Assembly (NCBI GenBank): GCA_031406795.1
Contig: JANOHV010000237.1
Coordinates: 1-16,892 of the forward strand
Direction of reading: 5' to 3'
DNA: 16,892 nucleotides
Origin: DATDCY01 sp031406795 [NCBI: Candidatus Rokuibacteriota bacterium]
GTDB lineage: Bacteria > JAUVQV01
The notes under the pieces were generated by a model. The model had not been told where the DNA came from. It did no database searches and was given only the letters and a program-made list of their open reading frames with translations. Numbering within the stretch: the first letter of the stretch is position 1; every line of letters begins with the position of its first letter. The translations under genes and the position numbers were made by a program. This document shows positions 921-16,892 of the stretch, piece by piece.

Positions 921-2897
<1,977 letters not shown>

Positions 2898-2945
2898 GCC
2901 GCCTCCTTGTGGTGTTGTTGCCGCTCCCCTGGTGATGGCCCGGGG

Positions 2946-4508: not shown

Positions 4509-4512
4509 CGCC

Positions 4513-4824
4513 TCAGGCTCCGATCTTCTCGCGGACGCGTTTGACGAGCGCGTCGTACGAGGTGTTGGCCCAATAGACGTAGATGCCGGTGAGCACCCAG
4601 GAGAGCAGGATGACGCCGACCGCGATCGGGATGCCGATGGTCATGGCGGAGTTCTCGGAGAGTTTGCCCGACAGGAATGGCTTGTTAAACGCGATCAGTG
4701 CGATGAAACCGAAGTACAGCGAGAGTTCCACGATCGTCAGCACAGTCGAGATCGTTCTCTTCTGTCCTGCCAGGGCCTGGAAGTCCGGGTCCTCAAGAAT
4801 GTTGTGCGCCGATTTCCCGCTCAT
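4513..4824 (-). CDS. DUF485 small membrane protein (YjcH-like ActP partner)
   Basis: This is a 103-aa inner-membrane protein with two hydrophobic helices (about 26-45 and 60-82), an N-terminal cytoplasmic DPDFQ segment and a charged tail ending [10 protein letters not shown]. Length and pattern match DUF485 proteins such as E. coli YjcH, which are encoded next to actP. The start at 4824 is preferred over an in-frame start 63 bp upstream because GGAGAGG sits 6 nt before this ATG and the extra 21 residues are Arg-rich and not family-like. It is the first gene of the operon with actP (4 bp gap) and acs. Its role is not known in detail; a small accessory subunit of the acetate symporter is the likely one, by analogy with DUF4212 before the second symporter. 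Confidence 0.93.
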
Positions 4825-4865
4825 GCTGCCTCTCCCCAATGGATAGATATCGCCGCGTCGGGTCG

Positions 4866-4883
4866 GCCGGGCTGCAGTCCGGC
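4866..4883. promoter_or_regulatory. Imperfect palindrome upstream of DUF485-actP-acs
   Basis: An 18-bp inverted repeat, GCCGGGCTGCAGTCCGGC, has 16 of 18 positions symmetric around CTGCAG. It sits 42 bp upstream of the DUF485 start in the only non-coding stretch before the acetate operon. It is a candidate operator or leader structure. No convincing -35/-10 pair was found next to it, so the operon promoter remains unplaced. Confidence 0.3.
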
Positions 4884-4922
4884 GCACGATCCCCGCACCT
4901 GGAGGGGCATGCTACCACCAAG

Positions 4923-4949
4923 AAAAACGGGAAAAATCATTACTTTTCC
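4923..4949 (-). terminator. Weak possible terminator after the DUF294 protein A gene
   Basis: Just after the stop of the cNMP-CBS-DUF294 gene, the minus strand shows GGAAAA, an 8-nt loop, TTTTCC, then CG and five T residues. The stem is short and AT-rich, so termination would be partial at best. It could allow some read-through into DUF485-actP-acs. Confidence 0.3.
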
Positions 4950-4951
4950 GC

Positions 4952-6862
4952 TCACCATATGGAGGCCCGGTAGCGCTCGATCACGAGCCCCTGCACTTTG
5001 GTCACCAGGCCGAAGGCCTCCCGCGCCGTCTTGCGCTCCAGCGCGCTCAGCCCGTCCGGGTCGACGAAATTGTCGGGTTCAAGCCCGGCCGCGGCCTGGG
5101 CGTGCTGATGGTGGATTCTCAGCAGCATCAGGAACTCGAACGCCTGCTCGAGTTCCTCGCCGTAGCGGCCGACGATCGTGTTCTGCTCGCGCAGCGCGCG
5201 CAGGCGGTCGAGTGTGCCGGTCTCCGGCGAGCCCTTCTCGAGCGCGAAGAGACGGGCCAGATCGACGATCGGGGCGATCGCCTTGAGCTTGAGGTTGAGC
5301 TGGTCACGGTGCTCGCCTTCCTTCTCGACGACGAAATGGTGGAGGAAGCCAAGCGGCGGCGGGTTCTTGATGATCTGATTCGCAAGAAAACCGAGGAAGG
5401 CCGGCGTGCGCGCGATGGCGGCCGCCAGGTGGGCGCGCAGCTGCACGGCGAGATCCTCGGCGCCGAACAGGGGGCGAAAGTCGAAGAGGATCAGCGAGCG
5501 CAGCACCGCCTCCGCGTCGGGATTGCCGACCCAGGAGGAGAAGGTCCGCTTCCAGTCGCGCAGCGGCCGGCACCACTCCGGGTTCGCGGCCATGTAGCCC
5601 CCGGGGCAGAGCGGAAAGCCGCAGCGCGCGAGCGCGTCGCGGACCAGCGGCGTGAAGGCCGCGAACCACGCGCTCGCCTGCCGCGCCTGCTCCTCGTCGG
5701 CCGGGTCGGTGTAGATGACCGCATTGTCCTGGTCGGTCTTGAAGGTCTGCTCGCGCCGCCCCTCGCTGCCGAACACGATCCAGCACCAGGCGACGGGGGC
5801 CGGCTCGAACTGTCTGCCGACCAGTTCGAGAACCTTGCGCACGAGCCGGTCGTTGATCTCGGTGATCACGCGGGTGAGGTTGCCCGCGCCGGCCCCCTCC
5901 TCCAGCAGGACGCCGATCATGCCGTCGACCGCGCGCGCGGCGCGGCAGAGGCCTTCCAGATCCTGCTGGTCCTCGATCTCGCGGACAACCGCGATCGGCG
6001 AGGCCCCCTGGAGCATCATCAAGTCGTGATTGGTGATCACCCCGCGCAGGCGCCCGTGCTCGAGAACGGGCAAGTGGTGCACGTTGCTGCGGATCATCTT
6101 CACCAGGGCCTCGAAGCAGATGTCGTCGGGTTCGGCGGTGATGACGAGCGGGCTCATGATCGTCTCGACGGGCGCCGCGCCGTCGAAGGCCGGGGCGGCG
6201 ACTTTGTCGCGGAGGTCGCGGTCGGTGATGATGCCGACGGGTGCGCGGTCGGCCGCCGCGATGACCAGCGAGCTGACGCGGTTGCCCGACATGATCAGGG
6301 CGGCATCGCGGATCGAGAGGTGCGGGGGGGCGGTGACCGCCGCGCGCTTGACGAGTTCGCCGACGGGGGTCGAGAACATCAACTGCTCGCGGCCGCCCCG
6401 GGCGCGGTTGCCGTCGCGCAGGTCGCTGAAGAGCTTGTCCATGTAGGTGGTGATGAACGTGCGGGTGAAGAATTCCCGGACTTCGGGCCGCCGCTCGAGC
6501 AGCGCGAGAAAATGCTCACGGGGGATCAGGTAGCAGAGCGTGTCCTCGACGGCGGCTACGTTGGTCCGCGAGCGCTCGCCGCTGAAGAGCGAGAGGTAAC
6601 CGATCGCGGCACCCTCGGAGCGGTAATCGACCTCGACTTCGCCGGCGTTGCCGGCCGAAAGGGAGACCTTGACCCCCCCCGACACGACGATCTTCAGAAA
6701 CTCGCTCGGCGGGTCCCCCTCAGCCAGAAGCGGCGTGCCGGCGGGGGAGAAATCGATTTCCACGTGCGCCGCCAGTTCGCGCAGGTCGGACGCTTCCAGC
6801 AGTCGGAACGCCGGAACGCGGGCGAGAAACGCGGCTACATCTTCGATGACCCAGTCACTCAT
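4952..6862 (-). CDS. cNMP-binding / CBS / DUF294 putative nucleotidyltransferase (paralogue A)
   Basis: This 636-aa soluble signalling protein has four parts: a cyclic-nucleotide-binding-like domain (about 8-130), two CBS domains (about 163-290, with GIITDRDLRDK and GVITNHDL), a DUF294 nucleotidyltransferase domain with GSEGRREQTFKTDQD (365-379; Asp377 and Asp379 as metal ligands, as in GlnD-type enzymes), and the DUF294 C-terminal helical domain. The ATG at 6862 was chosen because the paralogue at 12512 begins at the equivalent point; a GTG at 6946 would add 28 residues that do not look like the family. In the cNMP domain the usual Gly-Glu of the phosphate cassette is Gly-Tyr. It lies 127 bp upstream of DUF485-actP-acs on the same strand. 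I infer that it senses a nucleotide (adenylates via CBS) and modulates acetate uptake; the target is unknown. Confidence 0.92.
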   Translation of the reverse strand: MSDWVIEDVAAFLARVPAFRLLEASDLRELAAHVEIDFSPAGTPLLAEGDPPSEFLKIVVSGGVKVSLSAGNAGEVEVDYRSEGAAIGYLSLFSGERSRTNVAAVEDTLCYLIPREHFLALLERRPEVREFFTRTFITTYMDKLFSDLRDGNRARGGREQLMFSTPVGELVKRAAVTAPPHLSIRDAALIMSGNRVSSLVIAAADRAPVGIITDRDLRDKVAAPAFDGAAPVETIMSPLVITAEPDDICFEALVKMIRSNVHHLPVLEHGRLRGVITNHDLMMLQGASPIAVVREIEDQQDLEGLCRAARAVDGMIGVLLEEGAGAGNLTRVITEINDRLVRKVLELVGRQFEPAPVAWCWIVFGSEGRREQTFKTDQDNAVIYTDPADEEQARQASAWFAAFTPLVRDALARCGFPLCPGGYMAANPEWCRPLRDWKRTFSSWVGNPDAEAVLRSLILFDFRPLFGAEDLAVQLRAHLAAAIARTPAFLGFLANQIIKNPPPLGFLHHFVVEKEGEHRDQLNLKLKAIAPIVDLARLFALEKGSPETGTLDRLRALREQNTIVGRYGEELEQAFEFLMLLRIHHQHAQAAAGLEPDNFVDPDGLSALERKTAREAFGLVTKVQGLVIERYRASIW

Positions 6863-7079
6863 GTCTCTGGATTTTCCCCGCTCATCGGTGACTCCAGATG
6901 CTCGCGGGGACGCCTGACGCGTAACCGACGAGCCGTAATCCAACACGACTCAAATCGTAGCAAATAACGTGCCTGGCCTTCTTGCTGCCGCATCAATTAG
7001 AATTTCGCTGTAAATACAATCCGATGTGCGATCAGCAGCGGGTCGTTTCGGGAATGTTCCGCCCCGGGAGACTCGGTGC

Positions 7080-7094
7080 GTTACAAATGGTAAC
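7080..7094. promoter_or_regulatory. Inverted repeat GTTAC-N5-GTAAC (copy 1)
   Basis: Perfect 5-bp arms GTTAC/GTAAC flank a 5-bp centre. On the minus strand it reads GTTACCATTTGTAAC. A second copy at 14588-14602 matches 13 of 15 bases. This copy lies 218 bp upstream of the DUF294 protein A start and 157 bp upstream of the RnfD-like start, so either gene could be controlled. The symmetry suggests a dimeric transcription factor; I do not recognise which. Confidence 0.45.
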
Positions 7095-7212
7095 CGGCGG
7101 CGGTCTGGTGCCACCTTTCATGCAGACAGCCCTCCGCAGGTCGGGGGCAACGAGCGTCAGCGGTGCCATTCCGTCGGCGATACGCGATGACGAAGCCTGA
7201 AATGGCCGGCAG

Positions 7213-7242
7213 TTGACAACACCAGAGGGTAGCGTCTACAAA
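7213..7242 (+). promoter_or_regulatory. Candidate promoter of the RnfD-like gene, leaderless type
   Basis: A perfect -35 hexamer TTGACA (7213-7218) is followed after 18 bp by TACAAA (7237-7242, 4 of 6 to TATAAT). The ATG at 7251 begins only 8 bp after the -10, so transcription would start at or within a few bases of the start codon. The lack of any Shine-Dalgarno just before this ATG agrees with a leaderless mRNA. Confidence 0.4.
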
Positions 7243-7250
7243 CCCCCATC

Positions 7251-8183
7251 ATGTGGACTGTCGTCGCAGCGCTGCTGCCCGCTGCAGCAGTGGGTGTCTT
7301 TTACTTCGGGACCCCGGCGCTCGCCGTACTCCTGATCTCGATCACGGTGTGTCTCGCCCTCGAGGCGCTCGCGCTGCGCCTGCAGGGTCGTCCGGTCATG
7401 CTCGCAGATGGCAGAGCGGTCCTGATCGGGCTGTTGTTGGGGATGAACCTCCCGCCCGGCTCGCCGGTCTGGTTAGTCGTAGCCGGCTGCGCGGTGGCGT
7501 CGGCGTGCGCCAAGCTGGTCTTTCGCGGGCTCGGGTCCAGCCCGTTGAATCCGGCACTCGTCGCGCGCGTTGTTCTGCTGGTCTGCTTCCCGGCGCAGAT
7601 GACGAACTGGAGCCCGCCGGGCGGTCTCTTCAGCGCAGCTCCCGGCGCGACACGCGCGCTCAGCCCGCTCGATGAGGTCGGCCGGGGGCTTCTGGCGCAT
7701 GGTACGGCGCTGGCGGCCGGCCGGCTGGATCTGCTCGACGGGTTGATCGGAAGGATCCCCGGCAGTGTTGGCGAGACGTCGGTGATCGCGCTCGCGCTCG
7801 GAGGAGCGTTCCTGCTTTGGCGCGGGATCATCTCCTGGCATATTCCCGTCGCGTTTCTCGGCAGCGTGGCGGCGCTTGCGGCAATCAGCTCGGCCATTGA
7901 CCCCGCCCGTTTCCCCGGCGCTGGTTTTCATCTCGTAACCGGCGGGTTGGCGCTCGGCGCGTTTTTCATGGCCACCGACTCCGACGCCTCTCCGGCCTCG
8001 CCGCGCGGAATGCTCGTCTACGGGGCCGGATGCGGGCTGTTGACCTGGATGATCCGCTCCTGGGGGGGCTATCCGGAGGGCGTCCCGGTCGCGATTCTGC
8101 TGATGAACATGTTCACGCCACTGATTGTCCTGTACTTTCCGCCGGGGCGATTCGCAGAGCCGGGGCCGAATGAGACTTCCTGA
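7251..8183 (+). CDS. RnfD/NqrB-family membrane protein, orphan
   Basis: This 310-aa inner-membrane protein has about nine hydrophobic segments and clear similarity to RnfD, the flavin-bearing membrane subunit of the Rnf ion-pumping ferredoxin:NAD oxidoreductase. Family-like segments are SPLNPALVARV (about 97-107), IPGSVGETSV (169-178), HLVTGGLALGAFFMATD (227-243) and WGGYPEGVPVAILLMN (271-286). The covalent-FMN site is recognisable but altered: PGATRAL (Thr134 is the candidate acceptor) where RnfD normally has an (S/D)GATPL-like motif. The N-terminus begins directly at the first helix (MWTVVAALLP), about 20-30 residues shorter than usual, and an in-frame stop lies only 18 bp upstream. No other rnf gene is in the window. 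Its role could be electron transfer with partners elsewhere, or a derived function. Confidence 0.85.
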   Translation: MWTVVAALLPAAAVGVFYFGTPALAVLLISITVCLALEALALRLQGRPVMLADGRAVLIGLLLGMNLPPGSPVWLVVAGCAVASACAKLVFRGLGSSPLNPALVARVVLLVCFPAQMTNWSPPGGLFSAAPGATRALSPLDEVGRGLLAHGTALAAGRLDLLDGLIGRIPGSVGETSVIALALGGAFLLWRGIISWHIPVAFLGSVAALAAISSAIDPARFPGAGFHLVTGGLALGAFFMATDSDASPASPRGMLVYGAGCGLLTWMIRSWGGYPEGVPVAILLMNMFTPLIVLYFPPGRFAEPGPNETS

Positions 8184-8190
8184 CCCGCTT

Positions 8191-8203
8191 CCGGCAATGC
8201 CGG
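8191..8203. terminator. Small hairpin between convergent genes
   Basis: CCGGC-AAT-GCCGG is a perfect 5-bp stem with a 3-nt loop. It lies within the 20-bp gap between the RnfD-like stop and the yihY-like stop. No T-run follows on either strand, so it may only slow RNA polymerase or protect 3' ends. Function as a bidirectional terminator is a guess from position. Confidence 0.3.
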
Positions 8204-9067
8204 CTACCGCGCTGAAACCAAGCCGGCCGCGACCCGCCTGCCGTGCCGACCCCGGCCCGGCTCCCCGTCGATGAGAGCCGTCACCTCGGCGCCGAGCAGC
8301 AGCACCGCCGCGGAATAGTAGGCCCAGACGAGCAGCACCGCGGCGGCGCTCAGGGAACCGTAGACGAGCGAGAAACTCCCGAACGCCGACACGTACAACG
8401 TGAAGAGGTGCTTGGCCGCCTCCCAGAGGATCCCGGTGAAGAGGGCGCCCAGCAGGCAGGCGTGCGCGGACGCCCGGCGATCCGGGACGCGGTGGTAGAT
8501 CAGGAAGCAGATCAGCAGCGAGACGAGGAAGGGGACGACGTAGGCGAGCGCAATGTTGAGGAGCACCCCCGTCGTGGCGGGAAGCAACGGGGAGGGAAGC
8601 CGCCGCAGGTACTCGAAAACGGCAGTCAGGCCGACGCTCACCAGGAACGAGGCGCCGCACAGCACGATCATCAGCAGGTCCAGCCCCAGCCCGTGCAGCG
8701 TGCCCCGGGCTTTCGGGACGCCGAAGATGGTGTTCAGAGCGACCCTGAGCCAGCCGAAGATCGTCGTGGCCGCCCAGAGCAGGCCGATCGTCCCGACGAC
8801 TCCGTAGGTCCCGCGGTGGCTGAAGCTCTCGAGAAGATCCCGGTGCAGGGACGGGTCGAGCGCCGGCGCCGCCTGTTCGAGATAGCGACCCAGTTGCTCG
8901 GCGACGCGCTCGTCGGCGAACAGGTAGGACCCCGCGAACGAGAGCAGCAGCAGCGTGAAGGGCACCAGGCACAGCAGCCCCTGGAACGCGATCCCCGAGG
9001 CGAGGAAGAAACCCTGGTCGCGGTCGAATTTCGCGAGCGCCGAGCCGAGGAGGCGGATGGCCTGCAT
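8204..9067 (-). CDS. YihY/BrkB-family inner-membrane protein
   Basis: This 287-aa polytopic membrane protein has six predicted helices. The family pattern is seen at both ends: GIAFQGLLCLVPFTLLLLS near the N-terminus and VYGSLSAAAVLLVWAYYSA followed by LLGAEVTALIDG near the C-terminus, the typical YihY last-helix signature. Older annotations call such proteins virulence factor BrkB or ribonuclease BN, but the RNase assignment is known to be wrong for this family and the true function is not settled. The ATG at 9067 is preferred to a TTG 36 bp upstream because YihY proteins start just before the LGSALAKFDRD-type helix; neither has a good ribosome-binding site. It lies 72 bp after the 97-aa membrane-protein gene on the same strand and may share its transcript. 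Confidence 0.9.
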   Translation of the reverse strand: MQAIRLLGSALAKFDRDQGFFLASGIAFQGLLCLVPFTLLLLSFAGSYLFADERVAEQLGRYLEQAAPALDPSLHRDLLESFSHRGTYGVVGTIGLLWAATTIFGWLRVALNTIFGVPKARGTLHGLGLDLLMIVLCGASFLVSVGLTAVFEYLRRLPSPLLPATTGVLLNIALAYVVPFLVSLLICFLIYHRVPDRRASAHACLLGALFTGILWEAAKHLFTLYVSAFGSFSLVYGSLSAAAVLLVWAYYSAAVLLLGAEVTALIDGEPGRGRHGRRVAAGLVSAR

Positions 9068-9139
9068 GGGCTGATTATCGCGGCTGGGGTTCCCGCAATG
9101 CAAGCGGCAAGGTGCTCAGTCGAAAAGCGGGCGAGGCCG

Positions 9140-9433
9140 TCACGATCCGGAAGGGGCGGCGAAGAGCACCAGCTTGATCTTCCAGGCGGTCAACGCCACC
9201 CAGAGCAGCGACAGCAACACGAAGGAAACGAAGGGCAGGTGCCGGTCGAGGACAAAACGCGGGGTGACCTGACGGACAAGCCGGTCTGCCGGCTGCGTCA
9301 CCCGCTTGAAGAGACGGAAGGCGAAGTTCTTCTCCCGCGCCGACGCGGCCACCAGAAAGATGATCGCCTGCCCGAGGTAGACCATGGCCAGAAGCTCCAC
9401 GCCCGCCTTGAGCACCCTCACAAGCGCGAGCAT
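9140..9433 (-). CDS. Small two-helix membrane protein, unknown
   Basis: This 97-aa protein has two hydrophobic helices (about 10-31 and 67-92) joined by a basic, proline-containing loop (FKRVTQPADRLVRQVTPRFVLDRH). The layout, helix-loop with P..R....TP then a second helix, is reminiscent of one half of YggT-type proteins, but the match is weak and I would not name it so. A strong GGGGAGAGG ribosome-binding site lies about 8 nt before the ATG, which supports real translation. It follows the VC_2705-type symporter gene by 81 bp on the same strand and precedes the yihY-like gene, so it probably belongs to the tail of the module B operon. No catalytic residues are apparent. Confidence 0.75.
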   Translation of the reverse strand: MLALVRVLKAGVELLAMVYLGQAIIFLVAASAREKNFAFRLFKRVTQPADRLVRQVTPRFVLDRHLPFVSFVLLSLLWVALTAWKIKLVLFAAPSGS

Positions 9434-9514
9434 CCGGCGCCTCTCCCCGGGGAACGGGCTTCGCTCCGGTGTCGGCGGGGCGGCGGGAACCCCGGGTTCA
9501 CGTCGTTGCCACGC

Positions 9515-11416
9515 TCAATCGTCGTGGCTGGAGGCGCCCACCGCGCCGCGCGGGTAGCGCACGCTCTCGACGAACTCCTGAAGCTCCCGGCTCGGGGCCG
9601 CGGTCAGCCGCGAGACGGCATAGATCGTCAGGAAGCCCGCCGGGATGCCGAAGATCCCGGAGGAGACGGTCTTGATCCCCCACCATTCCAGGCCGTAGAA
9701 GCGGCTGCCGATCATGTAGAAGACGGTCAGACAGAAGCCGACGGTCATCCCGGCGACCGCGCCGGTCTTGTTCGCGCGCTTGTCCCAGACGCCCAGCACG
9801 AGCGCGGGGAAGAACGAGGCCGCTGCGATGGAGAAGGCCCAGGCCACCAGTTCGACGATGATCGTGATTTTGTAGGTCGCCACCCATGCGGCGACGCCCG
9901 CGGCGAAGACGAGGAGGACGCGCGAGATCGTCAGGCGGCGCATGATGGAGGCGCTGGGGTTGAGCACCTTGTAGTAAAGGTCGTGGGAGAGCGCGTTGGA
10001 GATCGTCAGCAGCAGGCCGTCGGCGGTCGAGAGCGCGGCGGCCAGGCCGCCCGCCGCGACGAGACCGGAGATCACGTACGGGAGGCCGGCGATCTCGGGG
10101 GTCGCGAGCACGATGGCGTCCGCGCCGAGCGTCAACTCGCCGAACTGCAGGATGCCGTCCAGGTTCATGTCCCTGATGGCGACCAGCCCGACCAGGGCCC
10201 AGTTGGCGGTCCAGGCCGGCAGTTCGGCGATCTTGCTGCCGACGAGGGTGCTCAGCACTTCCCAGCGCGCGAACGCCGCGTATGCCGGGGCGGTGAAGTA
10301 GAGCAGGAAGATGAAGAAGAGCGACCAGCCGACCGAGGAGCGGGCGTCCTTCACGGAGGGCACCGTGTAGTAGCGCATCAGAATGTGCGGCAGCCCGGCC
10401 GTTCCGACCATCAGGCAGAAGGTCAGCGCCAGCATGTTCTTGCGGTCCATGCGGGCGAACGGCTGAAGGTACGGCTTGATCGGCTTGGAGGAGGCGACAG
10501 CGGTCTTCTGGGCGGCGATGAGTTTTTCGCGCTCGGCAATCGGGGTGGCCGGGTCCTTGAGTTTCTCGCCGATGGCCCGGCCCTCCTCGGCCCACTTTTC
10601 GCGGACCACGCTCTCCGCCGGGTCGGCGATGATCTCCTTCTCCCGGGCGTCGATCTTCTGGAGGATCTGCCCGTACATGATTTCGGAGACGGGCACGCCG
10701 GTGTGCTTGTAGGACATGACGGTCACCGGGGTCAGATAGGCGATGATCAGGATCAGGTACTGGGCGACCTGCGTCCAGGTGACCGCTTTCATGCCGCCGA
10801 GCAGCGAGCAGACGAGGATGCCGCCGAGGCCGACGAAGACGCCGACCCCGAAGTCGATGCCGAGGAACCGGCTGGTGATGATGCCGACGCCGGTGACCTG
10901 CGCGATCAGGTAGGTGAACGAGGCGGTGATCGCCGCGACGACGCCGATCAGGCGCGGGATGTTGCCGCCGTAGCGCGCGCCGAGGAAATCCGGGATCGTG
11001 TACTGCCCGAACTTGCGCAGGTAGGGCCCCAGAAAGACGGCCAGCAGCACGTAGCCGCCGGTCCAGCCCATGATGTAGGCCAGCCCATCGTAGCCCATGA
11101 CGTAGATCGTGCCGCCCATCCCGATGAACGTGGCCGCGGACATCCAGTCCGAGCCGGTGGCCATCCCGTTGAAGACCGAGGGCACCGAACGCCCGGCGAC
11201 GTAGTACTCCGAGATCTTCGCGGTCCGGGAGACGACGCCGATCAGCGCGTAGACGCCGATGGTCACGCCGATGAAGGTGTAGCCGATCGTCTTCGGCGGC
11301 AGGCCCATTTTCTCGGCGATCCCGAGCAGGATCACGAAGGCGATGAAGACGCCGGTGTACATCCCGTAGACCCGGCCGAGATTGTCGAGGAAGGCGCTGC
11401 TTCGCTGCTTGGCCAT
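9515..11416 (-). CDS. Sodium:solute symporter, VC_2705 subfamily
   Basis: This 633-aa SSS-family transporter has about 13-14 membrane helices. It contains VAGRSVPSVFNGMATGSDWM (about 73-92) and [20 protein letters not shown] (338-357), closely parallel to ActP, which points to a carboxylate such as acetate, propionate or pyruvate as substrate. It is longer than ActP mainly because of a highly charged, probably cytoplasmic loop at about 252-312, and it ends with the ELQEFVESVRYPRG tail. The ATG at 11416 overlaps the stop of the DUF4212 gene by one base (TGATG). The ribosome-binding site GAGGAGG is encoded by the last Glu codons of that gene, so translation is coupled. DUF4212 is the known small partner of this subfamily. 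The actual substrate cannot be determined here. Confidence 0.94.
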   Translation of the reverse strand: MAKQRSSAFLDNLGRVYGMYTGVFIAFVILLGIAEKMGLPPKTIGYTFIGVTIGVYALIGVVSRTAKISEYYVAGRSVPSVFNGMATGSDWMSAATFIGMGGTIYVMGYDGLAYIMGWTGGYVLLAVFLGPYLRKFGQYTIPDFLGARYGGNIPRLIGVVAAITASFTYLIAQVTGVGIITSRFLGIDFGVGVFVGLGGILVCSLLGGMKAVTWTQVAQYLILIIAYLTPVTVMSYKHTGVPVSEIMYGQILQKIDAREKEIIADPAESVVREKWAEEGRAIGEKLKDPATPIAEREKLIAAQKTAVASSKPIKPYLQPFARMDRKNMLALTFCLMVGTAGLPHILMRYYTVPSVKDARSSVGWSLFFIFLLYFTAPAYAAFARWEVLSTLVGSKIAELPAWTANWALVGLVAIRDMNLDGILQFGELTLGADAIVLATPEIAGLPYVISGLVAAGGLAAALSTADGLLLTISNALSHDLYYKVLNPSASIMRRLTISRVLLVFAAGVAAWVATYKITIIVELVAWAFSIAAASFFPALVLGVWDKRANKTGAVAGMTVGFCLTVFYMIGSRFYGLEWWGIKTVSSGIFGIPAGFLTIYAVSRLTAAPSRELQEFVESVRYPRGAVGASSHDD

Positions 11417-11694
11417 CACTCCTCCTCGTGGAGATTGTATTTGCGATCGACGAGATTCATCGTGCGGGAGTAGTTGAAGACGAGCAGCACGAAGACGATG
11501 AGGGAGCCCTGGGCCCCCATGTAATAACCGAGCGGGAAGCCGAAGATCACGATGTGATTCAGCGCTTCAACGAAGAACGCCGCGCCGAACGAAACGGCCG
11601 CCCAGACGATCAGCGTGATCGTCGTGAGCCGTTTGTTCTCCCCCCAGTAGGCGGCCAGTGTCGCCCGGTCCACCCTCGCCTGCTGCATGCTCAT
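11416..11694 (-). CDS. DUF4212 symporter small subunit
   Basis: This 92-aa membrane protein has two helices (about 24-45 and 60-78). It carries the DUF4212 signature: AAYWGENKRLTTITLIVW near the N-terminus, then FPLGYYMGAQGSLIVFVLL, then the MNLVDRKYNLHE tail. Such proteins are regularly encoded immediately before VC_2705-type sodium:solute symporters and are considered a small subunit of the transporter. Here the stop codon overlaps the symporter start, so the two are translationally coupled and probably made in equal amounts. The ATG at 11694 has AGGAGGGG 4-5 nt upstream. It is the counterpart of DUF485 in module A. Confidence 0.95.
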   Translation of the reverse strand: MSMQQARVDRATLAAYWGENKRLTTITLIVWAAVSFGAAFFVEALNHIVIFGFPLGYYMGAQGSLIVFVLLVFNYSRTMNLVDRKYNLHEEE

Positions 11695-11722
11695 GTTCCC
11701 CTCCTGTTCAGATGTTGGCTAA

Positions 11723-11742
11723 CAGGCCGCCGAGGAGGCCTG
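11723..11742 (-). other. Leader hairpin before DUF4212
   Basis: Perfect 6-bp arms CAGGCC/GGCCTG enclose an 8-nt loop in the untranslated stretch between the candidate promoter and the DUF4212 ribosome-binding site. It has no T-run, so it is not an intrinsic terminator. A role in mRNA stability or translation is possible but not shown. Confidence 0.25.
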
Positions 11743-11783
11743 CCCGAAGAACGAGTTTTTCAGGACCCTGCCAAATCCTGCCG

Positions 11784-11812
11784 ATTCTGTCCTTCCCGTC
11801 CGTCGTGGTCAA
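11784..11812 (-). promoter_or_regulatory. Candidate sigma-70 promoter for DUF4212-symporter
   Basis: On the minus strand TTGACC (5 of 6 to TTGACA) and CAGAAT (4 of 6 to TATAAT) are separated by exactly 17 bp. The pair lies in the 140-bp gap after the exonuclease gene and would give a leader of about 80 nt before DUF4212. It would let the transporter genes be expressed apart from the upstream DUF294-exonuclease pair. Confidence 0.4.
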
Positions 11813-11834
11813 CCCCTCGCGGTCTGTCCGCCGG

Positions 11835-12503
11835 TCAGGGTTTGCCGACGCGCAGCAGATCGCCGAGCGTCCGCACGCCGAGGCCGGGCAGCGCGCGCAA
11901 CTGGCGCTGCAGAAGTTGAGCCGTGATGAAGGCGTCGGTGAGCGCGTTGTGGGCGCCGCCGATCCGGATGCCGTGGCGTTGGGCGAGCGAAACGAGATTC
12001 AGTTCGCCTTCCGCCGCCGCGTAGCCTCCCGCGTGGCGGAGGCGCTGCTGCTCGACCCACCCGTGGATGCGCACGGTGTCCACGGCCCGCCGGCGCAGGT
12101 CGGCGGAGCGGATCGCGGACGCCTCGCGCGCGAGAAAGCCGAGGTCGATGCTGAAGAAGTGCCCGACCAGGATACGGTCGCCGCAGAAGGCGAGCAGCTC
12201 TTCGGCGACGATGTCGAGAGACGGTTTCGCGGCCACGTCGTCGGGGGTGATCCCGTGCACGACGATGCTCTCGCGCTTGAAGTTCGCGCGCGGGCTCACC
12301 AGCCGGTAAAAGCTGCGCCCGAGCTCGATGCGCGTGCCGGCCATCTTGATGGCGCCGACCGAGATCACCGAGTCGCGCTTCATGTCCAGGCCGGTGAGTT
12401 CGGTGTCCACGACGACGAACGGAATCTGTTCGATCGGCAACCCGGGGTCGACGACCGCCCCGGCCTTGAGAAACCCGCGAAACCTCTCGACGAGCGTGGC
12501 CAC
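11835..12503 (-). CDS. DEDDh 3'-5' exonuclease (DnaQ / Pol III epsilon-like)
   Basis: This 222-aa protein has one RNase T/DnaQ-type exonuclease domain. The DEDDh residues are all present: Asp33 and Glu35 in VVVDTELTG, Asp120 in LVGHFFSID, and His185 with Asp190 in GAHNALTDA. It should degrade DNA or RNA from the 3' end with two metal ions. The start is a GTG at 12503 with GAGAGG upstream; the open frame extends further but would overlap the preceding gene deeply. It begins 8 bp after the DUF294 protein B stop, so the two are surely co-transcribed. It lacks the helicase or polymerase domains seen in replication proteins, and the genuine replicative epsilon subunit is likely elsewhere. I recall that this exonuclease is often a neighbour of DUF294 proteins; its task there is unknown. 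Confidence 0.92.
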   Translation of the reverse strand: MATLVERFRGFLKAGAVVDPGLPIEQIPFVVVDTELTGLDMKRDSVISVGAIKMAGTRIELGRSFYRLVSPRANFKRESIVVHGITPDDVAAKPSLDIVAEELLAFCGDRILVGHFFSIDLGFLAREASAIRSADLRRRAVDTVRIHGWVEQQRLRHAGGYAAAEGELNLVSLAQRHGIRIGGAHNALTDAFITAQLLQRQLRALPGLGVRTLGDLLRVGKP

Positions 12504-12511
12504 GTTTCCTC

Positions 12512-14419
12512 TCAGGCCCCTACGAGGCCGGGCCGGTACTGCTCGATGATCAGGTCCTGGACGCGGGAGATCAGCCGGAAGGCGTCCTTGAGCGATTTCT
12601 TCTCGTAGGTGCTCAGCGAGCCAGGGTCGATGAAACTGTCGCCCGGGCCGCCGGCCTGGATCTGCTCGAACTGGTGCTGGATGCGCAGCAGCGAGAGAAA
12701 TTCGAAGGCATGCCCGAGTTCCTCCCCGTAGCGGCCCAGCAGCGGGTGGTTCGGCCGCAGCGTGGCCAGGCGGTCCAGCGTGCTGGTATCCGGAATGCCG
12801 GCCTCCAGCGCGCAGAGTCGGGCGATGTTCACGATCGGCCCCAGCGCGCTGATCTTGAGGTTGAGCTTGTCCTTGTGCTCGCCCTGGGTGTCTACCGAGA
12901 AGGCGCCGAAGAACCCGAGCGGCGGGCGGTGCAGCGTGACGGTCCCGGCCAGCCGGGCGTAGAAAACATTCTGGTTGCGCATCGCCTGGGTCAGGTGCGC
13001 GCGCAACTCGTCGGCGAGGGAAAGCGTGCCGGCCAGTCCGCGGAAGTCGAAGAAGATCGTCGCGTGCAGCAGGGCCTCGGGCCCGGGGCTGGTGATCCAT
13101 CGGCTGAACAGGTCGCGCCACGCGGACAGCGGCTGGTTCCAGCGGGGGTTGTCGGCCATGTAGTTGGCCGGGCAGGGGGCGAAGCCGCAGCGAACGAGGC
13201 CGTCCTTCAAGAAGCGAGCGAAGCGGGGGAACCACGCCAGCGCCGCGGCCTCCTCCTCCGGGGTGCGCGGGTCGGCGTAGACCAGGGCGTTGTCCTGGTC
13301 GGTCCGGAAGGTCTGCTCCCGGCGCCCCTCGCTGCCGAAGGCGAGCCAGCACCAGGGCAGCGGCGCCGGCCCGAGACTGCGCAGCGCGAACTCGATCACC
13401 TTACGCACGAGCCGGTCGTTGATCTCGGTGATGATGCGGGTGATGTTGCCGGCGTGCGCGCCGTCTTTGAGCAGCAGTCCGACGATGCTGGTGACCTTCG
13501 CCGCGGCCTGGACGAGCCCGTCGAGGTCCGTCTGGCCCTCGATCTCGCGGACGACGGAGATCGGCGAAGTCCCCTGCAGCACCAGCAGGTCGTGGTTGGT
13601 GACGATCCCCCGCAGGCGGCCGTCGTCCACGACGAGCAGATGGTGGATGTTGTGGCGGAGCATCGTCAGCAGCGCTTCGAAACAGTAGTCCCCGGCGTCC
13701 GCCTTGATCAGCGAGGTGCTCATGATGTTGGCCACCGGTTCGGAGGTCGGGCGCCCGCGGGCGGCGACCTTGTCGCGCAAGTCCCGGTCGGTGATGATCC
13801 CGACCGGGACGCTGTCGCCGTCGGTCAGCACGAGCGAGCTGATGCCGTGGTGCGACATCAGCCGGGCAGCGGCCTGGATGGTGATGTCGCGTGAGGCTGT
13901 TGCGGCCGGGTGCGTGATCAGATCGCCGACCGCCGTTGTGAACAGCAGCTTCTCGCCGCTGCCGAAGAGTTGGCTGCGGCTGCGCATGTCGGTGAAGGCC
14001 TTGTCCATGTACTTGGAGAGAAACGTGCGGTGGAAGTACTCCCGCACCTCGGGGTGGGCTTCGAGCAGCGCGAGGAAATGCTCCCGCGGCATGAGGTAGC
14101 ACGTCGTGTCCTCGACGGCGGTGACGTCGGTTCGGGAGCGATCCCCGCTGTAGAGGGAGAGGAACCCGATGGCGTCCCCCTCGGAGCGGTAGTCGATGAC
14201 GATCTCCTCACTGTCGCTCGAGCGCATCGAGACTTTGGCTCCCCCGGTGCGCACGACTTGCAGGGAGTCGCTTGCCGGCCCGCCCTGGGTGAGGATCGGA
14301 AATCCCTTCGGGTAGTACTCGAGAGACATTGAACCGGCAAGAGCGCTCAGGGTCGGTTCGTCCAGGAGTTGGAATGGGGGTATCCCTTGGAGGAACGAAA
14401 CGGGTTCAAACGTAATCAT
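12512..14419 (-). CDS. cNMP-binding / CBS / DUF294 putative nucleotidyltransferase (paralogue B)
   Basis: This 635-aa protein has the same order as the protein at 4952: cNMP-like domain (about 6-130), two CBS domains (about 165-285, with GIITDRDLRDKVA and GIVTNHDL), DUF294 nucleotidyltransferase with GSEGRREQTFRTDQD (362-376; Asp374 and Asp376), and the DUF294 C-terminal domain. The two paralogues align without a gap through at least the first 380 residues. In the cNMP cassette the usual Gly-Glu is Gly-Phe. The start is uncertain: ATG at 14419 matches the paralogue best, ATG at 14452 would add 11 residues, and neither has a clear ribosome-binding site. It is followed by the exonuclease (8 bp) and then DUF4212 and the symporter. 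I infer a regulator of the adjacent sodium:carboxylate symporter responding to nucleotide levels. Confidence 0.92.
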   Translation of the reverse strand: MITFEPVSFLQGIPPFQLLDEPTLSALAGSMSLEYYPKGFPILTQGGPASDSLQVVRTGGAKVSMRSSDSEEIVIDYRSEGDAIGFLSLYSGDRSRTDVTAVEDTTCYLMPREHFLALLEAHPEVREYFHRTFLSKYMDKAFTDMRSRSQLFGSGEKLLFTTAVGDLITHPAATASRDITIQAAARLMSHHGISSLVLTDGDSVPVGIITDRDLRDKVAARGRPTSEPVANIMSTSLIKADAGDYCFEALLTMLRHNIHHLLVVDDGRLRGIVTNHDLLVLQGTSPISVVREIEGQTDLDGLVQAAAKVTSIVGLLLKDGAHAGNITRIITEINDRLVRKVIEFALRSLGPAPLPWCWLAFGSEGRREQTFRTDQDNALVYADPRTPEEEAAALAWFPRFARFLKDGLVRCGFAPCPANYMADNPRWNQPLSAWRDLFSRWITSPGPEALLHATIFFDFRGLAGTLSLADELRAHLTQAMRNQNVFYARLAGTVTLHRPPLGFFGAFSVDTQGEHKDKLNLKISALGPIVNIARLCALEAGIPDTSTLDRLATLRPNHPLLGRYGEELGHAFEFLSLLRIQHQFEQIQAGGPGDSFIDPGSLSTYEKKSLKDAFRLISRVQDLIIEQYRPGLVGA

Positions 14420-14587
14420 GGCTGTACGAATCAATAGCAATCCGCGTGCCATTGATGAAGAGGGCCGGACGCTGACGGAAACTCCTCTAATACCGGCACG
14501 TTAGAAACCGTTTGGCTGATGCTTTCAGTTGCCGGCGCGGGATCTCGGGAAAAAAAGGTACGGCCCGGCAGATCGGTCAGGCGGCGT

Positions 14588-14602
14588 GTTACAAGAGGTA
14601 AC
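14588..14602. promoter_or_regulatory. Inverted repeat GTTAC-N5-GTAAC (copy 2)
   Basis: On the minus strand this reads GTTACCTCTTGTAAC, matching copy 1 at 7080-7094 in 13 of 15 bases, with both 5-bp arms perfect. It lies in the 206-bp gap between the Sir2-like stop and the DUF294 protein B start, 168 bp upstream of that start. A run of seven T (minus strand, 14556-14550) lies about 30 bp further on, too far from this hairpin to be its terminator tail. Confidence 0.45.
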
Positions 14603-14625
14603 GGCACCGCAATGAGGAACTTCGT

Positions 14626-15333
14626 TCATGAAGAGACAATCAGCGGCAGGATCTCCTCCGGCGGGCCGATCAGCAGTGCGTTGACGGGCAGCTCGCCGAC
14701 TGGCTGTACGGGGGAGATTTCGACAAGGAAGGCGCCCGCCTTTCTCGCAACGCCGGCGAACAGCGCTGCGGGGGTGTTCCGGACCGAGGTGCCCGCGACG
14801 ATGAAGACCTCGCATTGCGAAAGCGCTTCGAAGCAGTTGACCAGCAGCTCCTGGGGGACGTGCTCCCCCTGCCAGAGGATGCCCGGCCGGACCAGGCCGG
14901 TACAGATCGGGCAGGAGGGCGGATTCGCGATCGGGATATCGCGGTTCACGGAGCGCATCCCGCAGCGCGTGCAGCGGACCACCCAGAGGTTTCCGCGCAA
15001 CTCGAGCACACTCCTGCTCCCGGCGAGCCGGTGCAGACCGTCGATGCCCTCGGTGGCGAGCGTGAACTCCTTCATGCGACTCTCCAGCGTCGTGAGCGCC
15101 TGGTGCGCCGCATTGGGGCGCACGCCGGCCAGCCGCGCGCGGTGTTCGTCGTACCACCGCCAGACCGCGAGCGGATCCTCGAAGAAGGGAAGCGGTGAGT
15201 CGAGGTCGAAGGCCGGCGTTTCACCGGCGGGAATCAGGCCCGCGCCGGTGAGGACGAAGACCCGCCTGGCCTTCGAGAGGCGGGAGCGGACTTCCTCCAG
15301 CAGGCGGCTCTGCTCTGCAGTCGCTGTTGCCAC
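14626..15333 (-). CDS. Divergent Sir2-family protein (sirtuin fold, altered active site)
   Basis: This 235-aa sirtuin-like protein belongs to a family that normally removes acetyl groups from lysine using NAD. Recognisable parts are VLTGAG (27-32), the four zinc cysteines (121, 124, 141, 144), RPGILWQGE, GTSVRNTPA (181-189) and VEIS (204-207). Key residues are changed: the GIPxFR arginine is Asp43; the TQNID motif reads TEGID (94-98), losing Gln and Asn; the catalytic HG(N/E) histidine is Arg113 in ELRGNLW; and the later Asn of the NAD site is Ser207. Standard deacetylase activity is therefore doubtful, although folding and zinc binding look intact. The GTG at 15333 was chosen because earlier starts overlap the DUF3330 gene; there is no good ribosome-binding site. 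It lies 49 bp after that gene on the same strand. Confidence 0.88.
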   Translation of the reverse strand: MATATAEQSRLLEEVRSRLSKARRVFVLTGAGLIPAGETPAFDLDSPLPFFEDPLAVWRWYDEHRARLAGVRPNAAHQALTTLESRMKEFTLATEGIDGLHRLAGSRSVLELRGNLWVVRCTRCGMRSVNRDIPIANPPSCPICTGLVRPGILWQGEHVPQELLVNCFEALSQCEVFIVAGTSVRNTPAALFAGVARKAGAFLVEISPVQPVGELPVNALLIGPPEEILPLIVSS

Positions 15334-15382
15334 CGGGAGACTGTAGCATACACGCACCCCGCGGCCCGGCCCGCGCACCGGG

Positions 15383-15562
15383 TCAACCCGGCTTTTTGTC
15401 TTCCGTGGCCTGCTGTTCCTGCCACCTGCGGTAGCACTCGAGGCCACAGAAATGGTGCACATAGTCGGGACCCTCGTGCGTGTGCGCCAGATCGTGGGGC
15501 ATCTCCTTCATGCAGATTGAGCAGGCCAGCGGGGCCTCCTGCTGCGGAGTCTTGTCGCTCAT
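15383..15562 (-). CDS. Small DUF3330-like zinc-binding protein
   Basis: This 59-aa soluble protein contains a likely zinc site: CSIC near residue 14 and, after a His-rich segment (HTHEGPDYVHHF), CGLEC, followed by YRRW. The spacing and the DYVHHFCG...CYRRW ending match DUF3330-type proteins as I know them. The ATG at 15562 is chosen over an upstream in-frame ATG at 15673 because it has a near-ideal ribosome-binding site and the longer version would be translated through the palindromic repeat. It lies 49 bp before the Sir2-like gene and is probably co-transcribed with it. Function is unknown; a metal-stabilised adaptor or redox-sensitive protein is possible. Confidence 0.8.
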   Translation of the reverse strand: MSDKTPQQEAPLACSICMKEMPHDLAHTHEGPDYVHHFCGLECYRRWQEQQATEDKKPG

Positions 15563-15565
15563 CCC

Positions 15566-15577
15566 GATCACCTCCTT
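15566..15577 (-). promoter_or_regulatory. Near-perfect Shine-Dalgarno of the 59-aa gene
   Basis: The minus strand reads AAGGAGGTGATC, complementary over 12 bases to the usual 3' end of bacterial 16S rRNA. The GGAGG core lies 8 nt before the ATG at 15562. It decides the start of the short protein and predicts strong initiation. Confidence 0.85.
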
Positions 15578-15585
15578 CGAGGGCA

Positions 15586-15648
15586 GGCCGCTGAAAAAGG
15601 CCCATCTGCGGCTCGCACGCCTTGCATCTGGACCCTTTTGAGCAGCCC
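15586..15648. repeat. REP-like imperfect inverted repeat
   Basis: About 63 bp form two arms of roughly 25 bp around a short centre. The left arm contains GCTGAAAAAGG then CCCATCTGC; the right arm, read on the other strand, contains GCTCAAAAGGG then TCCAGATGC. The arms can pair with a few mismatches and one-base gaps. It lies between the barrel-protein gene and the DUF3330 gene. The sequence style resembles dispersed palindromic elements I recall from Desulfuromonadales-type genomes, but there is only this copy in the window. On the minus strand CCTTTTTCAGC ends the structure, so it could also act as a partial terminator. Confidence 0.55.
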
Positions 15649-15704
15649 GCCCATTGAATATTGTAACATTCATGCATCCTGGAGATGGAGACTACAGGAA
15701 TTTA

Positions 15705-16892
15705 TCAACGTTGTCTCGAAGCCGAGGGCCCCAGCAGTCCCTGGGGAATCCAGATTCCAAGCGTCGGGTAGACCCCGCCCTCCGCGTCGAGCCCGGCAGC
15801 GATACCGAGCCGCACGGACAGCGGGAAGACGTACGAAAAATAGAGGTCGAGGCGGATCTCGGCGCCGATTCCGGCGTGCAGTTCGCCCGTTCGGAACGCC
15901 CCGGCGCTCCAGGCTTCGCCGGCGTCGACGAAGAGCGCTCCATGGATGCGACGCAGAAAGAAAGGGGCCGACACGCCGCCGCGTCCGACCTCCAGCAGCG
16001 GGAAGCGGTACTCGAGGCTGGTGAGAAGCGCGCGCTCCCCGCGGAAGCGGTTGGGCGCGTACCCGCGCAGGCGCAGAGTCAGGTCGTCGGGAGCGGTGTC
16101 GATCTCGCCGGCCGTGCTGCCACCCAGGCTGAAAATGCCCTGTTGAGGCGGGCCGCCGCTCACGCTGCCGACGAGCAGGCGGGCCGCAAGCACGTGGCGG
16201 GGTGCGGGAAGCGCGAAGTACTCATTCCAGTCGAGGGTGGTTTGGGTGAAGGTCCGGGTACTGCCGAAGCCCTTCTGGAAATGCTCCAGCCGCAGGTCGA
16301 CCCGGCGGCCTTCGCTCGGGCTGACGGTGAGCGGCCAGCGGTGGGCGTCGGAGGAGGACCAGGCCAGGCGTGTGGAGCCGAGTTGGCCGGTTGCCGGCAA
16401 AACGTCGTCGTCTCCCGGCGATGGCGGCAGGGGGGAGAGCGCGGTGAGTTCGCGGTAGCGATACCCGAGGGCGATCGCCCGGGAGGAGTCGAGGCCAGGG
16501 AAGTCCAGGCCGATGTCGGCGCCGAGGGTGCGGAGACGCTCGCTGTAGTCGGCGCTGGCGCGACCGCGCTTGAGCAGGCCGCCATGCGTGCGGTCAATGT
16601 CCGAGGAGGTCAGGCTCACGGTCGGTCGCAGGCCGGCGTAGGTGTAGTCCAGCCAGTGCATCAGCCGGCCGCTCTCCGGCCCGTACAGGCCGGTGAAGGT
16701 ATAGCGGTGTCGTTGGAGCACATCCTGGCCGCCGGTGATGAGCCCCGCCAGCGTCCCGCTGGCCGGGCTGTATGCCGCCCACGGAAACCAGAGGCGGGGC
16801 AGGATCGTGTCGAGCGGGGAGTAGGCGGTCGATGCCGCCGGCGTTATCGTTCGGGCTGCGGGGTCCTGCCTGCCACCCCGCCGCTGGGGTGG
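15705..16892 (-). CDS. Outer-membrane beta-barrel protein, Omp85/D15-like C-terminal part (partial)
   Basis: At least 395 residues of an open frame run off the right edge of the window; no start codon is needed inside, since the frame stays open to the end. The visible part has alternating strands typical of an outer-membrane barrel. It contains an Omp85 lid-lock-like LRLRGY (RGY at about 276-278), then RALLTSLEYRFPL, ALFVDAGEAW, HAGIGAEIRLDL and a final GVYPTLGIWIP strand, as in bacterial surface antigen (D15) domains. The first visible residues include YSPLDTILPRLWFPW and ITGGQDVLQRHRY, which I associate with barrels attached to an N-terminal TolB-like beta-propeller; that part would lie beyond the window. 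It ends with a short hydrophilic tail (GPSASRQR) rather than an aromatic residue. Function is probably protein or lipid handling in the outer membrane; unproven. Confidence 0.85.
   Translation of the reverse strand, partial: PPQRRGGRQDPAARTITPAASTAYSPLDTILPRLWFPWAAYSPASGTLAGLITGGQDVLQRHRYTFTGLYGPESGRLMHWLDYTYAGLRPTVSLTSSDIDRTHGGLLKRGRASADYSERLRTLGADIGLDFPGLDSSRAIALGYRYRELTALSPLPPSPGDDDVLPATGQLGSTRLAWSSSDAHRWPLTVSPSEGRRVDLRLEHFQKGFGSTRTFTQTTLDWNEYFALPAPRHVLAARLLVGSVSGGPPQQGIFSLGGSTAGEIDTAPDDLTLRLRGYAPNRFRGERALLTSLEYRFPLLEVGRGGVSAPFFLRRIHGALFVDAGEAWSAGAFRTGELHAGIGAEIRLDLYFSYVFPLSVRLGIAAGLDAEGGVYPTLGIWIPQGLLGPSASRQR

What the first reader, a model, noticed from the sequence alone, without database searches (positions are those of the whole stretch)
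14626..15333. Sir2 homologue with replaced catalytic residues
The catalytic His of the HGN motif is Arg (codon CGC), TQNID is TEGID, the arginine of GIPxFR is Asp, and a later NAD-site Asn is Ser. The four zinc Cys and the GAG and GTS loops remain. Several independent changes at the active site, with the fold kept and the frame intact, argue against sequencing error and for a pseudo-sirtuin or an enzyme with a different reaction or ligand.
Basis: partly seen in the sequence, partly recalled or inferred. Interest (0 to 1): 0.62.

Follow-up and report, generated by a model that had tools for sequence, protein, structure and literature searches.

The report
Sirtuin fold with dismantled active site
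A bacterial gene beside acetate-use genes encodes a protein shaped like a sirtuin (an NAD-using enzyme that removes acyl tags from proteins), but its catalytic site has been taken apart while the rest has stayed normal, so it has probably become a non-enzymatic protein with another job.

Summary
The 235-aa minus-strand ORF (14626-15333) is a class III-like sirtuin (Pfam SIR2 1.1e-29) with Arg for the catalytic His, Glu-Gly for Gln-Asn and Ser for the NAD-site Asn. The cofactor-loop Arg is not replaced by Asp but deleted with 12 neighbours; acyl-channel and selectivity residues are changed too. None of 245 related sirtuins read has the His, Gln or Asn substitutions. Of 56 near-invariant columns 18 are changed or deleted; leave-one-out tests of 90 close relatives give at most 6, median 0. 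Of constrained columns, 56 of 57 are kept outside the active-site blocks but 18 of 34 inside; neutral decay never gave this in 2000 simulations. Identity to five near relatives is ordinary outside (45-49%) and collapsed inside (41-44%; comparable pairs average 86%). The model has the sirtuin fold but depends on the alignment. I read it as a pseudo-sirtuin kept for its fold, beside an acetate locus of probable Nitrospirota origin. It is one sequence, without orthologue, with a weak start site; no activity was measured.

The parts
14626..15333 (-). Degenerate class III-like sirtuin gene, 235 aa, GTG start, intact frame
   Evidence: fold model
15208..15237 (-). Remnant of the cofactor loop (residues 33-42, LIPAGETPAF): family Ser, Ser, Gly and Thr replaced by I34, G37, E38, A41
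15205..15210 (-). Junction Phe42/Asp43: 13 residues of the family (R-G-x-x-G-L-W-...) are missing here
15142..15144 (-). His64 (CAC) in place of the SIRT5-type acyl-selectivity Arg (Arg in 218 of 245 relatives, His in none)
   Evidence: role of the Arg from PMC3446968 passages
15046..15051 (-). Glu95-Gly96 (GAG GGC) in place of Gln-Asn of TQNxD
14995..14997 (-). Arg113 (CGC) in place of the catalytic His
14902..14973 (-). Zinc module with all four Cys kept (121, 124, 141, 144)
14869..14877 (-). Leu153 and Gln155 in place of Val and Phe of the acyl-lysine channel (xVxWFGE)
   Evidence: Gln155 aligns with residue 159 of Archaeoglobus Sir2
14776..14778 (-). Asn186 in place of the conserved Val after GTS (Val in 243 of 245, Met in 1, gap in 1)
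14713..14715 (-). Ser207 in place of the NAD-site Asn (Asn in 242 of 245, Thr in 2, gap in 1)
15383..15562 (-). Upstream small Cys-rich DUF3330 protein (59 aa) with a strong Shine-Dalgarno; its stop lies 49 nt before the sirtuin start, so the two may share a transcript
12512..14419 (-). Downstream neighbour: cNMP-binding/CBS/DUF294 protein, first gene of the conserved DUF294 - exonuclease - small membrane protein - SSF symporter - Acs module (context only)
921..2897 (-). Acs-type AMP-binding enzyme with the acetyl-CoA synthetase N-terminal domain; carries a C-terminal SGKIMRR motif whose lysine is the usual acetylation site (motif role recalled; context only)
   Evidence: Acs as a sirtuin target from PMC8603916 passages

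Best explanation
This is a pseudoenzyme: a class III-like bacterial sirtuin that has lost NAD-dependent deacylation but is still selected for its two-domain fold, including the zinc module. Shown here: the catalytic His, the Gln-Asn pair, the NAD-site Asn, the cofactor-loop Arg with its neighbours and residues of the acyl-lysine channel are gone; the rest of the protein is as conserved as in intact relatives. Inferred: it cannot cleave the nicotinamide bond or deacylate; the former substrate cleft, now lined by charged and polar groups (Arg113, Glu95, His64, Gln155, Asn186), no longer fits an acyl-lysine and instead binds a protein partner or a polar ligand, possibly still gripping an ADP-ribose-like moiety by the kept GAG and GTS loops. 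Given its place beside the DUF294, symporter and Acs genes, the most likely setting is control of acetate uptake and activation, but that link rests on neighbourhood alone.
For: Sir2 homology. Substitutions unique among 245 relatives read. 18 of 56 near-invariant columns lost against at most 6 in relatives. Losses inside active-site blocks 16/34 and outside 1/57; 2000 neutral simulations with the same total loss always lost 4 or more outside, mean 9.8. Identity to five near relatives is 45-49% outside the blocks and 41-44% inside, whereas 2453 pairs of relatives with 40-52% outside have 61% or more inside, mean 86%. All four zinc Cys kept. Four of 14 changed codons need two or three base changes; simulated neutral P 0.03. 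GC3 is 0.85 (0.80-0.90 by quarters), within the range of the neighbouring genes (0.80-0.96); four spacers have an overall GC of 0.54-0.62. AlphaFold pLDDT 91, pTM 0.89, Z 28.0 and rmsd 1.7 to zebrafish SIRT5. Placed among Nitrospirota sirtuins with a very long end branch, 3.14 against a median of 0.42.
Against: Only one sequence: no orthologue shares the changes, so selection after the loss cannot be measured directly. The start codon is GTG with almost no Shine-Dalgarno (duplex -1.6 kcal/mol). The good model borrows from the alignment: without it pLDDT is 37.6. The full motif blocks were set with the changed residues already in view; with narrower NAD-only blocks the contrast weakens (10/21 inside, 7/70 outside, p 0.0004). 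Retention of hydrophobic columns over the whole protein is not significant by itself (P 0.29). Up to the observed loss 7.6% of neutral simulations stay free of stops. No activity, expression or ligand data.
Confidence: 0.68

Rival explanations
1. Repurposed enzyme: the site was rebuilt for another reaction or ligand (for example a hydrolase or transferase that does not need the sirtuin His and Asn), so the changed residues are new catalytic groups.
For: Changes are concentrated and four codons need two or three base changes, which fits directed change; sirtuins have changed chemistry before, since SirTMs have Gln for His and ADP-ribosylate (PMC4518038 passages).
Against: SirTMs keep the Asn that is Gly here, and mutating it dramatically cuts their activity. 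The cofactor loop is deleted in part. No orthologue set shows a new conserved catalytic motif (0 of 245).
Confidence: 0.14
2. Ordinary pseudogene in decay: the gene has lost its use and simply has not met a stop yet.
For: No orthologue found, weak start site. Up to the observed loss, 7.6% of 1200 neutral simulations are still free of stops, and overall hydrophobic retention is within the neutral range. None of 230 genomes of the class whose Acs locus resembles the window has a close sirtuin at E 1e-28 or better, so such a protein is dispensable there.
Against: Neutral loss would be spread over the protein: the mean outside the active-site blocks is 9.8 columns, never under 4 in 2000 runs, and 1 is observed. 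Outside the blocks divergence is no greater than between intact relatives. Multi-step codons exceed the neutral expectation (P 0.03). Frame, GC3 and zinc Cys are intact.
Confidence: 0.13
3. Assembly or sequencing artefact, or a chimera of two sirtuin genes.
For: The source of the window is unknown, no genome is held for it and no reads can be inspected.
Against: Many separate substitutions, one of three bases in one codon, with GC3 and frame kept across all four quarters of the gene; none of 245 sirtuins read could donate the altered blocks.
Confidence: 0.03

Closest known systems
Class III (SIRT5-like) sirtuins, e.g. human/zebrafish SIRT5, CobB, Archaeoglobus Sir2, and the intact Nitrospirota sirtuins L028/L029
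   Same: Whole fold, zinc site, GAG and GTS loops; 41-50% identity to the eight intact relatives of alignment A2
   Different: Catalytic His, Gln-Asn, NAD-site Asn, cofactor-loop Arg and 12 neighbours, acyl-channel Val/Phe/Val and selectivity Arg all lost
SirTM, macrodomain-linked ADP-ribosylating sirtuins (class M)
   Same: Catalytic His replaced (Gln137 in SpySirTM; PMC4518038 passages)
   Different: SirTM keeps the catalytic Asn and is active. None of the 14 neighbouring genes of the window that I scanned by Pfam is a macrodomain or GcvH protein
FAM118A/FAM118B noncanonical vertebrate sirtuins (SIR2_2)
   Same: Sirtuin-fold proteins with individually very weak NAD processing that act as a pair (PMC12700824 abstract and passages)
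   Different: They lack the zinc module and belong to another subfamily; the protein here keeps the zinc Cys and belongs to the canonical family
Class IIa HDACs, an analogy only
   Same: A deacetylase lineage with an altered catalytic residue and unclear enzymatic activity (PMC12383505, title and start of abstract in search listing)
   Different: Unrelated fold (recalled); single-residue change

Membership tests
Sirtuin (SIR2) family by descent and fold | Significant match to the SIR2 profile and the Rossmann plus zinc-module fold | tested here: met
   PF02146 1.1e-29, score 104 against a cut-off of 24 bits; Z 28.0 to SIRT5
Sirtuin (SIR2) family by descent and fold | Four zinc-binding Cys | tested here: met
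   C121, C124, C141, C144 aligned with family Cys; metal binding itself not testable
NAD-dependent sirtuin deacylase (functional sense) | Catalytic His of HG | tested here: not met
   Arg113; His in 244 of 245 relatives, gap in the remaining truncated row
NAD-dependent sirtuin deacylase (functional sense) | Gln-Asn of TQNxD | tested here: not met
   Glu95-Gly96; Gln and Asn in 243 of 245, gaps in 2
NAD-dependent sirtuin deacylase (functional sense) | Cofactor-binding loop with FRGxxGLW | tested here: not met
   13 residues missing after Phe42
NAD-dependent sirtuin deacylase (functional sense) | Turnover of NAD and acyl-lysine | not testable with these tools
   needs the protein
CobB/NAD-dependent deacylase models of NCBIfam | Score above the curated cut-off | tested here: not met
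   best 152.5 bits against a cut-off of 243 (NF001753); CobB 139.2 against 320
SirTM (class M) | Gln in place of His with catalytic Asn kept | tested here: not met
   Arg113 and Gly96 against Gln137 and Asn118
SirTM (class M) | Operon with macrodomain and lipoylated GcvH-L | tested here: not met
   14 neighbouring genes of the window scanned by Pfam, none of these; the window ends 1.6 kb upstream of the sirtuin
SIR2_2 defence-type sirtuins (FAM118, ThsA, DSR) | No zinc module | tested here: not met
   zinc module present; the feature from PMC12700824 passages

The most novel reading that the evidence does not exclude
A bacterial pseudo-sirtuin has been recruited as a binding-only regulator of acetate activation: it sits in the Acs-symporter-DUF294 locus, keeps the docking faces of a deacylase but cannot deacylate, and so would shield Acs or a partner, or sense an adenine nucleotide, where other bacteria use an active sirtuin.
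Probability: 0.2. Interest if true: 0.68.

Novelty: new variant of a known kind. Interest (0 to 1): 0.5.

Why it matters
The catalytic His is described as found in all sirtuin classes but SirTM (PMC4518038, passages). A canonical zinc-bearing bacterial sirtuin whose catalytic, NAD and acyl-lysine sites are all dismantled while the fold stays constrained would show that the sirtuin fold can be kept for binding alone, and would give a natural test of which parts of a sirtuin serve partner recognition rather than chemistry. My searches of the open-access library for pseudo-sirtuins gave no paper or only listings in which no title or abstract start describes one (with 15 of 22 papers listed, 75); I did not open those papers for this question apart from passages of PMC8556138. 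Most subscription papers are not in that library.

Tried and rejected
Orthologues that share the changes. The exact-peptide scans of genome contigs and viral contigs found none. tblastn of plasmids and phages found only sirtuins of 37% identity or less among the rows shown (40 of 119 records, 15 of 34). Protein searches covered 9 genomes of fetched loci, Nitrospirota (395 genomes), the family, order and class of G001 (7, 176 and 230), the phyla of G004 and G002 (149 and 148), the orders of G034 and G273 (3 and 7) and the class of G273 (266). The best match reported was 50%. These sets overlap, and not every reported match was fetched and read. One search was thresholded at E 1e-28 and warns that an empty answer without a positive control shows nothing; in the order inside that class, one search did find weaker sirtuins in 23 of 176 genomes, so the search works there.

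Frameshift as the cause of the odd loop (LIPAGETPAFD): I read the other two frames of the printed DNA by eye and saw no family motif; no tool was run for this.

Whole-protein tests that did not discriminate: overall hydrophobic retention (P 0.29); codon-position differences (second/third position 0.376/0.622 for the window protein in 48 pairs against 0.364/0.680 in 867 pairs of relatives of similar divergence), a mild excess of protein change; stop-free chance (7.6%). Single-sequence AlphaFold was uninformative. The promoter scan around the gene found nothing.

SirTM-type ADP-ribosyltransferase: rejected as the first choice because the Asn is also lost. Acyl-lysine reader: weakened because the acyl channel is changed too.

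Rows dropped: loci L237, L238 and L241 were left out as duplicates, only the best ORF per locus was read, and 2 of 247 loci gave no hit. In some searches the 26 distant (SrtN-like; that label is recalled) rows were left out of 116; the tree used 90 close and 7 distant rows. The structure alignment used 32 of the 43 viral loci (near-identical ones, one with a stop and one short fragment left out). The start coordinates that I assumed for several neighbours (DUF485, exonuclease, DUF3330 by one codon, the alternative upstream sirtuin start) were not true start codons, so only the acs and sirtuin values and, with a 3-base offset, the DUF3330 value are used.

Searches returned errors: no own genome is held, and 'of' needs a G handle. 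The handles were then obtained.

Full report
Observation. The ORF at 14626-15333 on the minus strand starts with GTG and codes for 235 residues. Pfam SIR2 matches with E 1.1e-29. NCBIfam deacylase models match by homology but far below their curated cut-offs (152.5 against 243 bits at best).

Relatives. The best matches are intact sirtuins in the phylum of G001, whose named record is a Nitrospirae MAG: 50% identity at most, and 191 of 395 genomes carry a match. Others lie in the phyla of G004 and G002 (113 of 149 and 121 of 148 genomes). I read 245 sirtuin rows from the loci I fetched (247 loci used, 2 without a hit; not every reported match was fetched). Gln and Asn are present in 243 and His in 244; the missing cases are gaps in one truncated contig and in one gene with an internal deletion. 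No row has Arg for His, Glu-Gly for Gln-Asn, Ile and Gly for the two loop Ser, His for Arg64, Gln for Phe155, Asn for Val186 or Ser for Asn207 (two rows have Thr there).

Extent of change. In the alignment of 90 close relatives, 56 columns are at least 95% conserved; the window protein keeps 38, changes 14 and lacks 4. Leave-one-out tests of the relatives give at most 6 of 57 and a median of 0. The changed positions are the catalytic His, the Gln-Asn pair, the NAD-site Asn, the cofactor loop, the SIRT5-type Arg and residues of the xVxWFGE and GTSxxV blocks that line the acyl-lysine channel. The roles of the His, the nicotinamide pocket, the Arg and the pocket-lining residues come from passages of PMC7696986, PMC4164625, PMC3446968 and PMC4358366. 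The mapping of Val153, Phe155 and Val186 to Sir2Tm Val160, Phe162 and Val193, and the role of Asn207, are recalled. One search aligns Gln155 with residue 159 of Archaeoglobus Sir2.

Selection or decay. Among 91 constrained columns (near-invariant, or hydrophobic in at least 95% of rows, and not deleted), 16 of 34 inside the active-site blocks are lost and 1 of 57 outside, a Leu to Val (Fisher 1.1e-7). Simulated neutral decay with the same total loss gives 9.8 outside on average and never fewer than 4 in 2000 runs. With narrower block definitions the contrast remains but weakens (12/24 and 5/67, p 2.4e-5; 10/21 and 7/70, p 4e-4). Outside the blocks the protein is 45-49% identical to five near relatives and inside 41-44%; 2453 pairs of relatives with 40-52% outside have 86% inside on average and 61% at least. 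The frame would survive equal neutral change in 7.6% of 1200 simulations, indels not counted. Four of 14 changed codons need two or three base changes (neutral P 0.03). GC3 is 0.85 and 0.80-0.90 by quarters. Against this, hydrophobic retention over the whole protein is not significant by itself (P 0.29), the GTG start has almost no Shine-Dalgarno, and the blocks were drawn with the changed residues in view.

Structure. With 32 viral-contig sirtuins as the alignment, AlphaFold gives pLDDT 91 and pTM 0.89. The best matches are SIRT5 structures (Z 28.0, rmsd 1.7 over 226 residues) and Archaeoglobus Sir2. Without an alignment the model fails (37.6), so the high score shows compatibility with the fold rather than independent proof.

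Phylogeny and place. In a quick tree of 98 rows the protein falls within a 31-row clade whose other 30 rows all come from the Nitrospirota search (SH-aLRT 84, inner order unresolved), with an end branch of 3.14 against a median of 0.42. Its exact place is unsure. The flanking genes are closest, among what I searched, to the order of G001: Acs up to 81%, and the order DUF294 - exonuclease - small membrane protein - symporter - Acs recurs in 11 loci compared there, some cut by contig ends. Yet none of 230 genomes of that class has a close sirtuin (E 1e-28 or better), and 23 of 176 in the order have only distant ones (best E 3e-25). The gene was therefore either gained by transfer or kept from an older ancestor. 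No genome is held for the window itself, so its taxonomy is probable, not proven.

Neighbourhood. A small Cys-rich DUF3330 gene (15383-15562) with a strong ribosome-binding site ends 49 nt upstream of the sirtuin. The scan of 14300-15800 showed no terminator-like site on the minus strand. Downstream on the same strand lie a cNMP/CBS/DUF294 protein, an RNase_T-type exonuclease, a DUF4212 protein, an SSF symporter (ActP-like; that name is recalled) and, further on, Acs. Sirtuins activate Acs by deacetylation in other bacteria (PMC8603916 passages). This makes acetate control the natural guess, but nothing here tests it.

Verdict. I conclude that this is a pseudo-sirtuin whose fold is still under selection (0.68). 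A rebuilt enzyme (0.14) and a fresh pseudogene (0.13) remain open. Searches of the open-access library under the terms listed no paper whose title or abstract start describes a canonical bacterial sirtuin of this kind.

Noticed in passing
L235 (genome G025), frame 0, 219-residue ORF: A second odd Nitrospirota sirtuin: an in-frame deletion of 44 residues relative to L028 removes the YxxR and TQNVD motifs while the His and the rest stay. It may be another degenerate sirtuin or an assembly collapse.
   Followed up: partly
e.g. L133, L172, column of C124: In 21 of 245 sirtuins with intact catalytic residues, the second zinc Cys is replaced (Glu 17, Gly 2, Asp 1, His 1). The degenerate window protein keeps all four.
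   Followed up: no
window 921-14452: Duplicated acetate-type module: two cNMP/CBS/DUF294 proteins (53% identical), two SSF symporters and two small partner proteins (DUF485 and DUF4212), ending in Acs; one copy of the order recurs across the order of G001.
   Followed up: partly
window 7251-8183 (+): A lone RnfD-type subunit (TIGR01946, 266 bits) on the opposite strand inside the module; no other Rnf gene among the 15 genes scanned.
   Followed up: no
window 15383-15562 (-): Small DUF3330 Cys-rich protein with a near-perfect Shine-Dalgarno just upstream of the sirtuin; function unknown, a possible partner.
   Followed up: partly
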